Shown here piece after piece: positions 40,803 to 43,761 of a DNA stretch of 64,000 nt (positions within the stretch are counted from its first letter, which is position 1; the number at the start of each line of letters is the position of its first letter). The notes beneath the pieces were generated by a model. It saw only the letters and a list, made by a program, of their open reading frames with translations. It was not told the origin of the DNA and made no database searches. The stretch is taken from NCBI RefSeq assembly GCF_000314005.1, contig NZ_JH980292.1, forward strand, positions 4,438,121 through 4,502,120, in the 5' to 3' direction. The DNA comes from Spirulina subsalsa PCC 9445. Lineage in GTDB: Bacteria > Cyanobacteriota > Cyanobacteriia > Cyanobacteriales > Spirulinaceae. The position numbers and the translations under genes were made by a program.

Positions 40803-41032
40803 GGGGAGTTCACTCACTGGGCTAAAAACACCTATTTTAGTCTACATGAATCCCAGACCATCAGCATCCCACCCCTGAAAACCCCTACTTGCGGCTGATT
40901 TTTCCCCCAGCTTGATCGTTGATTCTTCATCTAGGTCTATCAGCGTTCCCTCGAAAAACCGGAAAGTGACAGACGAGGGCTAACGGACGCACCAATAATT
41001 TATACTAACGTTGATAGAAACGGTTCACTCAA

Positions 41033-42067
41033 ATGACTTCATACGCTTTCTGGAACAATAAAGGTGGAGTAGGAAAAAGCTTTCTTTGCTTTGTAGCGGC
41101 TTCCGAATATGCTTACCGTCACCCTGATACAGATGTCTATGTCATTGATTTATGTCCACAAGCCAATGTCTCAGAAACTATACTTGGGGGAAATCCTAAT
41201 AGTCCAAAGGCCCTAAACTCGTTAATTCAGAAAAAACCACGAGCAACAGTAGCAGGCTACCTAGAAGCACGTCTGAATTCGCCTTTTATGATGCTCCCTG
41301 ATATTTCTCCCTATGTCTGTGAAGCTAGAGATTTTAATTCTAATATACCGAAGAATTTAAAACTTGTATGTGGTGACAATCTCTTGGAAATACTCTCTGA
41401 AGCAATCCGCCAAACCTCCCAACTTTCAATCCCTATTGATGCTTGGAAACAGGTACTTACTTGGATCAAAGACCTGACTGTTGCTCTGCGCAAAAAAAGT
41501 GGGAATCGGGACACTTTATTTGTGATTGATTGTAATCCGAGTTTTGCTGTTTATACACAGCTTGCTCTGGTTGCCGCAGAAAATTTAGTGATCCCATTCA
41601 CGGCTGATGATAGTTCCCGTCGCGCTCTAGAGAATGTCGTGGCACTTCTCTATGGTATCAGCGATCCATTAACTGAAACCTATGCACGAATTAGCTTTGC
41701 TAAACGAGCAAAAGAAGAGGGATTAGATATTCCAAAGTTACATACATTTGTGAGTAACCGGGTGACTTTATTTGAAGGAAACCCCAGCAAAGCGTTTCAA
41801 GCGGTCAACAAAACAATTAAGCAGACGATGGATGCTCTACATCAGAAACATCGTCATATTTATGCGATATCTAAAGAATTGCCTAGCAAAAGTTTTATCT
41901 CTATTCCTGATTATCATAGTGCTTGTGTGGTAGCTGCTCATACTGGCACTCCTTTGCACAAACTCAAATCGGGTCCCAAAATAATTGTGGAAGAACGGGT
42001 GCAATTGAATAAAGATCCTCTGGATAGATACCGAACCGCACTTGAGGAATTTGTAGACTGTCTCTAA
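41033..42067 (+). CDS. ParA-like ATPase in a cassette with a HEPN protein
   Basis: 344 residues. Deviant Walker A NNKGGVGKS (8-16) with the signature Lys, switch I DLCPQAN (Asp39), Walker B FVIDCNPS (Asp166) and the basic SSRRALENV region. These define a ParA/MinD-type ATPase that dimerises on ATP. Chromosomal ParA for segregation normally lies with ParB; here the neighbour is a HEPN protein 10 bases downstream and no ParB is present. A+T-rich coding. Function in this pairing is unknown; it could be the regulator of a defence module. Confidence 0.85.
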   Translation: MTSYAFWNNKGGVGKSFLCFVAASEYAYRHPDTDVYVIDLCPQANVSETILGGNPNSPKALNSLIQKKPRATVAGYLEARLNSPFMMLPDISPYVCEARDFNSNIPKNLKLVCGDNLLEILSEAIRQTSQLSIPIDAWKQVLTWIKDLTVALRKKSGNRDTLFVIDCNPSFAVYTQLALVAAENLVIPFTADDSSRRALENVVALLYGISDPLTETYARISFAKRAKEEGLDIPKLHTFVSNRVTLFEGNPSKAFQAVNKTIKQTMDALHQKHRHIYAISKELPSKSFISIPDYHSACVVAAHTGTPLHKLKSGPKIIVEERVQLNKDPLDRYRTALEEFVDCL

Positions 42068-42077
42068 GATTATTACT

Positions 42078-42680
42078 GTGCCTTCACCAGCAGCTATTAA
42101 GTATCAGATCGCCTCCGAACAGGCTCGAATTCTTCGATCAACAGCAACTGATCTTCGGTTGCGACCAATATCACGGACTCAAACTCAAGTTTACTATCAC
42201 TCCGCTCTTGCCGCATTTATTGCGGCATGGGATGCTTACATCAATGAACTGGTAAGAAATTTTTTCGATGCAACGGCGAATCCCTTAGATTCCCAATTCC
42301 ATGCTGTACATTCTGTGGCGAAAGGGAATGCTGAACGGGAACTTAAAAGATTCAATACACCCAATGCAGAGAACACCCGTAACCTTTTAGTACAATATAC
42401 TGGTTATGATCCTATCGGAGATTGGGTTTGGCCAGCCAGAAATATGAATGGGGTTAGGGTTCGTGAAAAACTCAACGAAATTATGAAAGTACGGCACAGT
42501 TTTGCACATGGCTTTAGTATTCCTGCATTTTCTTGGACTCAAACCCCTACGGGAAGAGTTCGGCTCACGGCTCAAGCTATTAAGGATGTTGATGCTTTCT
42601 GTCAAAATCTTGTTACTGTTACGGATCGCGGTATGAAACAGCATATCCAAACAATTTATAGTAGATCAATGCCTTGGTAG
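42078..42680 (+). CDS. HEPN-domain protein (RiboL-PSP-HEPN-like)
   Basis: 200 residues, helical. The N-terminal SALAAFIAAWDAYINELVRNFFD and the motif Arg139-HSFA-His144 (VRHSFAHGF) fit the RX4-6H active site of HEPN ribonucleases, with a layout like the RiboL-PSP-HEPN family found in conflict systems. GTG start at 42078, 10 bases after the ParA stop, so the two are co-transcribed. It ends before MITE copy C. RNase activity is inference from the motif; the target is unknown. Confidence 0.72.
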   Translation: MPSPAAIKYQIASEQARILRSTATDLRLRPISRTQTQVYYHSALAAFIAAWDAYINELVRNFFDATANPLDSQFHAVHSVAKGNAERELKRFNTPNAENTRNLLVQYTGYDPIGDWVWPARNMNGVRVREKLNEIMKVRHSFAHGFSIPAFSWTQTPTGRVRLTAQAIKDVDAFCQNLVTVTDRGMKQHIQTIYSRSMPW

Positions 42681-42741
42681 GAAAGAGGCAAGAGCCACTC
42701 TTGCAATAGGGGGGAGTCGGAGAATTATTACTTATTGCCTA

Positions 42742-42859
42742 GGGCTTGCTGAATAACTCTGCTCCGGGTGGGGAACAGGGAACAGGGGAGAGGGAATAGG
42801 GAATAATTCTTGATTCCTCGACTCCCGATTCCCGACTCTCCCACTTATTCAGCCAACCC
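42742..42859. repeat. MITE-like element C, at the pstA stop codon
   Basis: About 118 bp with ends GGGCTTGCTGAATAA (42742) and (inverted) GGGTTGGCTGAATAA; GGGAACAGGGAACAGGGG core. Its last base belongs to the pstA stop codon (42859-42861 on the minus strand). A duplicated TA or CTA is the most that can be seen at the ends. Confidence 0.75.
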
Positions 42860-43761
42860 TAGCTATAAAAGGCCTTCTGTTTGCCCGCCAAACGCGCCAC
42901 AATACTGAAAATTAACACAATAGCCACTAAAACCATTGCCGCCGCCCAAGCTAAATCTTGAGAGGCCTTATAGGGAATAATCGAGAAGAAATAAATCAAC
43001 ACAGGCAAAGTCGCCACGGGCCGACTGGGATCCGTTGACCAAAAATTATTATTAAACGCCGTAAATAATAAAGGCGCCGCTTCCCCGGCTGCCCGTGCTA
43101 AGGCCAAAACTACCCCAGTAATAATTGCTGGGAGGGCGGCCGGAATGACAATGGAAATCACCATCTGGAAGCGGGTAGAACCTACCCCAATGGCAGCCTG
43201 ACGCATTTCATTGGGAACCAATAATAAGGCTTCTTCTGTTGCCCGAACAATAATCGGTAACATCAACACCGCCAACGCCACACCACCAGAAAAGGCGGAA
43301 AACCCTCCCATAGGCATCACCACAATGGAGTAGGCAAATAGACCGCATAAGATAGCCGGAACCCCGGTTAAAACGTTGGCGGAAAATTTGACCAGATAGG
43401 CGATTTTACTCCCCCGACCAAACTCAGCTAAATAAATGGCCGATAAGATGCCAAAGGGAACCGCAATAGCACTGGCAATGGCGAGGGTGATTAAGGTGCC
43501 GATAATGGCATGACCAAACCCCCCTTCTGTTAAACCGGGAGGGGGAGGTAGTTGGGTGAAGGTATCGGGAAACTTGAGTTGATTCACCCCTCTAGCGGAG
43601 ACATTAATCACCACCATAAACAGGGGAATTAAAATGGCACTGGTGAAAATAAAGGTTAGTGAGGTGAGAGTAATACTCAAGATTCGCCGATGGAGGGCGA
43701 CTGATTTTTTAGATAGGTCAAATAGACGCTGATTAGGAATAGGTGAGGGCTGATTTTCCAC
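42859..43761 (-). CDS. pstA: Phosphate ABC transporter permease PstA
   Basis: 300 residues with six membrane segments and the permease loop EALLLVPNEMRQAAIGVGSTRFQMVISIVIPAALPAIITG, including the EAA-type cytoplasmic loop that contacts the ATPase. Partner of PstC and PstS for high-affinity phosphate import. pstB, which normally follows pstA, is not downstream: the stop is overlapped by a MITE and the HEPN gene beyond is convergent. Confidence 0.95.
   Translation of the reverse strand: MENQPSPIPNQRLFDLSKKSVALHRRILSITLTSLTFIFTSAILIPLFMVVINVSARGVNQLKFPDTFTQLPPPPGLTEGGFGHAIIGTLITLAIASAIAVPFGILSAIYLAEFGRGSKIAYLVKFSANVLTGVPAILCGLFAYSIVVMPMGGFSAFSGGVALAVLMLPIIVRATEEALLLVPNEMRQAAIGVGSTRFQMVISIVIPAALPAIITGVVLALARAAGEAAPLLFTAFNNNFWSTDPSRPVATLPVLIYFFSIIPYKASQDLAWAAAMVLVAIVLIFSIVARLAGKQKAFYS

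What the first reader, a model, noticed from the sequence alone, without database searches (positions are those of the whole stretch)
41033..42680. Two-gene ParA-like ATPase plus HEPN ribonuclease-like cassette
A ParA/MinD-type ATPase (KGGVGKS, DLCPQ, FVIDC) is followed after 10 bases by a 200-residue HEPN protein with Arg139-x4-His144. ParA proteins normally pair with ParB or CopG-type partners; a HEPN partner suggests an undescribed toxin or anti-phage module in which an ATP-switch protein controls an RNase. The cassette is A+T-rich, flanked by a MITE, and occupies the place where pstB would be expected. Seen: motifs, spacing, flanks. Inferred: function and coupling.
Basis: partly seen in the sequence, partly recalled or inferred. 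Interest (0 to 1): 0.82.

Follow-up and report, generated by a model that had tools for sequence, protein, structure and literature searches.

The report
Mobile ParA–HEPN ribonuclease gene pair
This is a small, horizontally spreading two-gene unit, present in many bacterial phyla, in which a ParA-type ATPase is encoded just before a predicted RNA-cutting HEPN protein; it looks like an antidote–toxin pair, a kind predicted in 2013 for which I found no experimental test.

Summary
In detail: a 344-aa ParA/Soj-type ATPase gene (41033-42067) and a 200-aa HEPN gene (42078-42680), 10 bp apart. The pair is real far beyond this genome. Of 45 testable loci with ParA at >=50% identity (cyanobacteria, Chloroflexota, Poribacteria, Proteobacteria, Actinobacteria), 40 have the HEPN gene immediately downstream. 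HEPN was never found without ParA (7/7 cyanobacterial, 15/15 poribacterial genomes). ParA outlived HEPN several times, the asymmetry expected of antidote and toxin. The Arg-x4-His motif is invariant (45/45), and the HEPN model resembles HepT-type toxins. More distant ParA relatives (36-42%) lack HEPN. The cassette is absent from the sister species. New here: in Poribacteria the pair, or ParA alone, often lies between Res and Mod genes of a type III restriction system (12 of 20 ParA loci within about 1.2 kb of Res). Not new: Anantharaman et al. 2013 already predicted a ParA/Soj–HEPN toxin–antitoxin dyad. The HEPN here belongs to another Pfam family (RiboL-PSP) and lacks the tyrosine that MntA AMPylates, so it looks like a variant. 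The 'pstB position' claim fails: pstB is elsewhere. Function, neutralisation and trigger are inferred; a tethered structure prediction gave no confident interface.

The parts
41033..42067 (+). ParA/Soj-type ATPase gene (344 aa), proposed antidote/switch
   Evidence: ORF; Pfam AAA_31 1e-11; closest solved folds Soj/ParA, Z 26.9, for a homologue's model
41060..41080 (+). deviant Walker A, KGGVGKS (signature Lys10, P-loop Lys15)
   Evidence: K10 G11 G12 G14 K15 invariant in 48 homologues
42068..42077 (+). 10-bp spacer between the two genes
   Evidence: spacing 9 or 10 bp in 32 of 43 dyads
42078..42680 (+). HEPN (RiboL-PSP type) gene, 200 aa, GTG start; predicted RNase toxin
   Evidence: Pfam PF18735 1.4e-10; AF2 pLDDT 94.4, pTM 0.90; HEPN folds top the PDB comparison
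42492..42509 (+). Arg139-x4-His144 motif (RHSFAH), predicted RNase active site
   Evidence: R139, H140, F142, H144, G145 in 45/45 homologues
40897..42844 (.). extent of sequence present here and absent (replaced by ~134 bp) in the sister species
   Evidence: blastn against L178
42740..42861 (.). MITE-like dispersed repeat with terminal inverted repeats; a related end also sits at the empty site of the sister species, so probably not the vehicle

Best explanation
The cassette is a mobile toxin-antitoxin/abortive-infection-type module. Shown: two linked genes, an intact ParA/Soj ATPase first and an intact HEPN protein second, co-inherited across phyla, with HEPN never found without ParA. Inferred: the HEPN protein works as a dimer and cuts cellular (or phage) RNA; the ParA protein, made first from the same transcript, holds it inactive by binding it in an ATP-dependent, ParA-dimer-like state rather than by AMPylation; when the ATPase is displaced, degraded or switched (for instance by phage takeover of DNA or nucleotide pools), the RNase is released and growth stops. 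In Poribacteria it is often an accessory inside a type III restriction-modification locus, which fits a back-up role when restriction fails.
For: Linkage: 40 of 45 testable loci. Spacing 9-10 bp in 32 of 43. Co-inheritance: ParA and HEPN distance matrices correlate, r 0.895 against a maximum of 0.38 in 2000 permutations. Asymmetry: HEPN 7/7 (cyanobacteria) and 15/15 (Poribacteria) with ParA; ParA without HEPN in L031, L038, L051, L055 and L058, with HEPN absent from the whole genome in all five; these are scattered in the ParA tree. Catalytic motif 45/45. HEPN fold closest to HEPN domains including HepT toxins, Z 8-9.8. Type III R-M nesting. Insertion/empty site. MNT-type AMPylation unlikely: the tyrosine of RX4HXY is F146 in 38/45 and Tyr in 1/45 (PMC7641770).
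Against: No experiment shows toxicity or neutralisation. A tethered 1:1 ParA-HEPN model gave confident domains but pTM 0.66, so no supported interface. No PADLOC model matches either protein. Outside Poribacteria the flanks are mostly ordinary genes. ParA persisting alone inside R-M loci could mean it has its own job there, not only an antidote role.
Confidence: 0.62

Rival explanations
1. The ParA protein is the sensor/activator, not the antidote: it binds DNA non-specifically as an ATP dimer, detects foreign or damaged DNA and switches on a HEPN RNase that is harmless on its own (as ABC ATPases do in RloC/PrrC).
For: ParA/Soj fold and intact ATPase motifs; nesting with type III R-M in Poribacteria, like PrrC with its R-M system; ParA kept without HEPN fits a protein useful by itself.
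Against: A harmless effector should sometimes be found without its activator; none was (22 of 22 linked). Gene order (regulator first, 9-10 bp) is that of antidote-toxin dyads.
Confidence: 0.22
2. A cellular RNA-processing or regulatory pair (not a toxin): ParA positions or assembles HEPN on the nucleoid for a housekeeping function.
For: Both proteins are well conserved within cyanobacteria (about 69-83% identity); in several cyanobacteria the flanks are not defence genes.
Against: Very patchy distribution (7 of 386 cyanobacterial and 15 of 84 poribacterial genomes), absence in the sister species, and presence in distant phyla.
Confidence: 0.1
3. Plasmid or element partition function: ParA segregates a mobile element and HEPN is incidental.
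For: ParA/Soj family membership.
Against: Here the pair sits in a 5.2-Mb chromosome-sized contig; no close relative of HEPN in 72,556 plasmids (best 30%) and none in phages; the next gene is HEPN, not ParB, in 40 of 45.
Confidence: 0.03

Closest known systems
ParA/Soj-like ATPase + HEPN (MAE_18760 family) dyad predicted by Anantharaman et al. 2013 (PMC3710099)
   Same: ParA/Soj SIMIBI ATPase gene 5' of an Rx4H HEPN gene, proposed antitoxin-toxin.
   Different: The HEPN here matches Pfam HEPN_RiboL-PSP and not the MAE_28990-type model PF18737; the type III R-M nesting, the breadth and the loss asymmetry were not found in the passages of that paper that I read. Its supplement could not be read, so identity with its examples is open.
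HEPN-MNT (HepT-MntA) toxin-antitoxin system (PMC7641770)
   Same: HEPN RNase fold with Rx4H, small two-gene module of regulator and HEPN protein.
   Different: Partner is a ParA ATPase, not an MNT nucleotidyltransferase; the AMPylated Tyr of RX4HXY is replaced by Phe.
PrrC/RloC HEPN anticodon nucleases with R-M genes or ABC ATPase domains
   Same: HEPN RNase under control of an NTPase, sometimes with R-M genes.
   Different: Separate ParA-type ATPase rather than a fused ABC ATPase; different HEPN family; type III R-M and only in Poribacteria.
ParA/Soj/McdA ATPases
   Same: Fold (Z 25-27) and ATPase motifs.
   Different: Partner gene is HEPN, not ParB or McdB; own subfamily (KGGVGKS, where the partnerless relatives mostly have KGGTGKT).

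Membership tests
HEPN superfamily (RiboL-PSP HEPN, PF18735) | family profile over the curated cut-off | tested here: met
   41.9 bits against 28.4
HEPN superfamily (RiboL-PSP HEPN, PF18735) | Rx4-6H catalytic motif | tested here: met
   45/45 homologues
HEPN superfamily (RiboL-PSP HEPN, PF18735) | helical HEPN fold | tested here: met
   pLDDT 94.4; HEPN chains dominate the top 21 rows, Z 9.8-6.8; moderate Z for a helical bundle, but the top rows are nearly all HEPN
HEPN superfamily (RiboL-PSP HEPN, PF18735) | RNase activity | not testable with these tools
   needs an enzyme assay
2013 ParA/Soj-HEPN dyad | ParA/Soj ATPase gene directly 5' of HEPN | tested here: met
2013 ParA/Soj-HEPN dyad | HEPN of the MAE_18760 family | tested here: inconclusive
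   no PF18737 match at E<=1; profile-profile with PF18737 members: probability 8.8%, E 0.004. That PF18737 covers MAE_18760 is from memory; the paper's list was not readable
HEPN-MNT toxin-antitoxin | MNT nucleotidyltransferase partner | tested here: not met
   partner is AAA_31/ParA
HEPN-MNT toxin-antitoxin | RX4HXY with acceptor tyrosine | tested here: not met
   position 146 Phe 38/45, Tyr 1/45
ParA/Soj (SIMIBI) ATPases | deviant Walker A with signature lysine, A' and B aspartates | tested here: met
   K10, K15, D39, D166 invariant in 48
ParA/Soj (SIMIBI) ATPases | ParB/segregation partner gene next to it (partition systems) | tested here: not met
   next gene is HEPN in 40 of 45 loci
Type II toxin-antitoxin systems | toxic protein neutralised by direct binding of the partner | not testable with these tools
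   tethered model gave no confident interface, pTM 0.66; needs co-expression
Type II toxin-antitoxin systems | toxin gene not kept without antitoxin gene | tested here: met
   22/22 HEPN-bearing genomes have the adjacent ParA

The most novel reading that the evidence does not exclude
A distinct family of RNase-based immunity in which a ParA-type, DNA-binding ATP switch (rather than an MNT, ABC or AAA+ protein) controls a HEPN ribonuclease, acting as a plug-in back-up for type III restriction-modification.
Probability: 0.3. Interest if true: 0.75.

Novelty: new variant of a known kind. Interest (0 to 1): 0.52.

Why it matters
ParA ATPases are known for moving DNA and protein cargo. A ParA that keeps a ribonuclease in check would add a new control principle to toxin–antitoxin and anti-phage biology. 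I found no experimental test of the 2013 prediction. The clear loss polarity, the natural HEPN-less ParA loci and the restriction-system nesting found here make it directly testable.

Tried and rejected
PADLOC gave no match for either protein, and NCBIfam only sub-cut-off matches. PDB sequence search gave only weak ParA hits and nothing useful for HEPN. HEPN was sought in plasmids, phages and viral contigs: only about 30% remote matches in three plasmids, none in phages or viral contigs, so carriage by phages or plasmids was not shown. A fused ParA–HEPN read-through (in-frame homologues, stop read as Gly) was folded to look for an interface: pTM 0.66, so not interpretable; the 4-residue linker and the missing dimers limit the test. 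Foldseek alone was not significant for HEPN; the VIA-align re-ranking was informative. No promoter or terminator signal above shuffles. No conserved upstream operator was seen by eye; similarity outside close relatives starts at the ParA start codon. The pstB-replacement idea was rejected. The MITE as vehicle is unlikely. A first ParA tree run failed on labels and was redone.

Full report
OBSERVATION. The first encodes a 344-aa ATPase with a deviant Walker A (NNKGGVGKS), a Walker A' aspartate (DLCPQ) and a Walker B (FVIDC), Pfam AAA_31 at 1e-11. The second encodes a 200-aa protein with RHSFAH (Arg139-x4-His144), Pfam HEPN_RiboL-PSP at 1.4e-10. They are 10 bp apart. Local GC is about 41% against 48-51% around. 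The repeat at 42740-42861 has 51 matches in the 5.3-Mb genome.

THE SITE. The genome of a sister species (same genus, G386) has ndhL and pstA next to each other with about 134 bp where the window has about 1950 bp (window 40897-42844), and no trace of either gene there. The names ndhL and pstA are read from the translations. The cassette is therefore a gain here or a loss there. The sister's short spacer already contains a repeat end of the same kind beside pstA, so the MITE-like element is probably not what carried the cassette. The remark that the cassette stands where pstB should be does not hold: pstB is elsewhere in the genome (G000:C2:1509899-1510657, 383.9 bits, the only match over the cut-off).

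THE PAIR ELSEWHERE. A scan of 84,980 species genomes with the ATPase returned 80 loci. The 46 with at least 50% identity come from cyanobacteria, Caldilineaceae, Poribacteria, Thiotrichales, Rhodospirillales, Azospirillum, Rhizobiales, Burkholderiales, Xanthomonas and Actinobacteria. One is cut by its contig end (L069). Of the other 45, 40 have a HEPN homologue immediately downstream. The gap is 9 or 10 bp in 32 of 43 dyads measured (that set includes the window and loci from the cyanobacterial sample). The 34 loci whose ATPase is 36-42% identical have no HEPN relative and no recurrent partner. In the tree the HEPN-linked ATPases form one clade (support 0.989) inside this wider family of partnerless ATPases. 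Distances of ATPase and HEPN correlate at r = 0.895 (permutation maximum 0.38, 2000 permutations). This shows inheritance as a unit; shared species history contributes to it. Sequence upstream of the ATPase start is not conserved except between close relatives (by eye).

ASYMMETRY. In 386 cyanobacterial genomes HEPN (>=69% identity) occurs in 7, always next to the ATPase. In 84 Poribacteria it occurs in 15, always next to the ATPase, while the ATPase (>=70% identity) occurs in 20. Ignoring phylogeny, the chance values are 1e-12 (Poribacteria) and 3e-14 (cyanobacteria). The ATPase is present with HEPN absent from the whole genome in L038, L051, L055, L058 (Poribacteria) and L031 (Oscillatoria) (some of these genomes are incomplete assemblies). 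In the tree these five are interspersed with HEPN-bearing relatives (L058 with L060, L038 with L054), so HEPN was lost several times (some nodes are weakly supported). One more locus has a HEPN broken into two frames with an intact ATPase (L030), and one genome keeps only a 64-residue ATPase remnant (L022). A toxin that cannot be kept without its antidote predicts this pattern.

THE HEPN PROTEIN. Arg139, His140, Phe142, His144 and Gly145 are invariant in 45 homologues. The AlphaFold2 model has pLDDT 94.4 and pTM 0.90. In the structural comparison nearly all of the first 21 rows are HEPN domains: HepT toxins of HEPN–MNT systems, sacsin, HepS, Csm6 (Z 9.8 to 6.8, rmsd 3.6-5.4 Angstrom), with LsoA at rank 23. 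Foldseek alone was not significant. It is therefore, by sequence and fold, a HEPN protein with a complete catalytic motif. In HepT–MntA the antidote AMPylates the tyrosine of RX4HXY (PMC7641770). Here that position is Phe in 38 of 45 and Tyr in 1, so this modification is not the likely control.

THE ATPASE. Its ATPase residues are invariant among 48 homologues. The ATPase domain of a homologue's model (L036) matches Soj/ParA/McdA structures at Z 25-27. A read-through fusion of in-frame homologues gave confident domains but pTM 0.66, so the arrangement of the two proteins is not predicted.

DEFENCE CONTEXT. Neighbours of the dyads include type III restriction (10 of 118 proteins) and type III modification (5 of 118) hits that are not among the 25 listed families for 120 neighbours of partnerless ATPases. 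A few of these hits are generic helicases (the L066 protein is UvrB). The Res/Mod signal is entirely poribacterial. There the dyad, or the ATPase alone, lies between a Res gene and a Mod gene, often with a small membrane protein and a ~140-aa protein at the same position and AAA ATPases beyond Mod. In the 84-genome survey, by comparing coordinates, 12 of the 20 ATPase loci lie within about 1.2 kb of Res, and 12 of the 28 genomes with that Res family have the ATPase there. Related ATPases in the same phylum occur without Res (for example L044, L050, L052), so the dyad and the R-M locus are separable. Elsewhere there are single suggestive neighbours (a TIR–NB-ARC–TPR protein in Frankia L046, a type ISP R-M enzyme in L035) but no statistical case, and in the window the flanks are housekeeping genes.

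WHAT IS KNOWN. Anantharaman et al. [quoted passage not shown] None of the library searches turned up an experimental test (titles and term counts, not full reading). By Pfam the HEPN here is RiboL-PSP, which that paper lists as fused to endoRNase L-PSP or in operon with ParB. It does not match PF18737, and a profile comparison with PF18737 members is weak. None of the 60 PF18737/PF18735 loci fetched from cyanobacteria (the best-scoring hits; some genes appear twice) has a relative of this ATPase within 1.5 kb. So either this is a different HEPN family recruited to the same kind of dyad, or the 2013 authors grouped this family under MAE_18760; their supplement could not be read.

JUDGEMENT. A mobile ParA–HEPN module is established by comparative evidence. 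A toxin–antitoxin or abortive-infection role with ParA as antidote is the best explanation (0.62). ParA as activator is the main rival (0.22). The kind was predicted before; the new parts are the phylogenetic scale, the loss polarity, the HEPN family, the absence of the AMPylation tyrosine, and the type III R-M nesting in Poribacteria.

Noticed in passing
L033, L038, L043, L051, L055, L056, L058: A ~155-aa membrane protein followed by a ~140-aa protein (weak FlgT_C match) recurs between Res and Mod of poribacterial type III R-M loci, with or without HEPN; no Pfam family for the first. Possibly another accessory of the locus.
   Followed up: partly
L031, L036, L041: In Microcoleus/Oscillatoria the dyad (or ParA alone in L031) has large genes that are similar among these loci beside it; in L031 the downstream one looks like a non-ribosomal peptide synthetase (condensation-like sequence read by eye).
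   Followed up: partly
L070-L103: A wide family of partnerless ~335-aa ParA/Soj ATPases (KGGTGKT type) in Proteobacteria, Actinobacteria, cyanobacteria and an archaeon, with no recurrent neighbour; function unclear.
   Followed up: partly
G000:C2:3250822 and G000:C2:4109086 (outside the window): The window's genome carries two further HEPN genes (PF18737 type), one with an internal TGA; the one fetched (4109086) has no ParA relative within 1.5 kb.
   Followed up: no
L046:5819-8587: TIR-NB-ARC-TPR protein gene about 1.4 kb upstream of the Frankia dyad.
   Followed up: no
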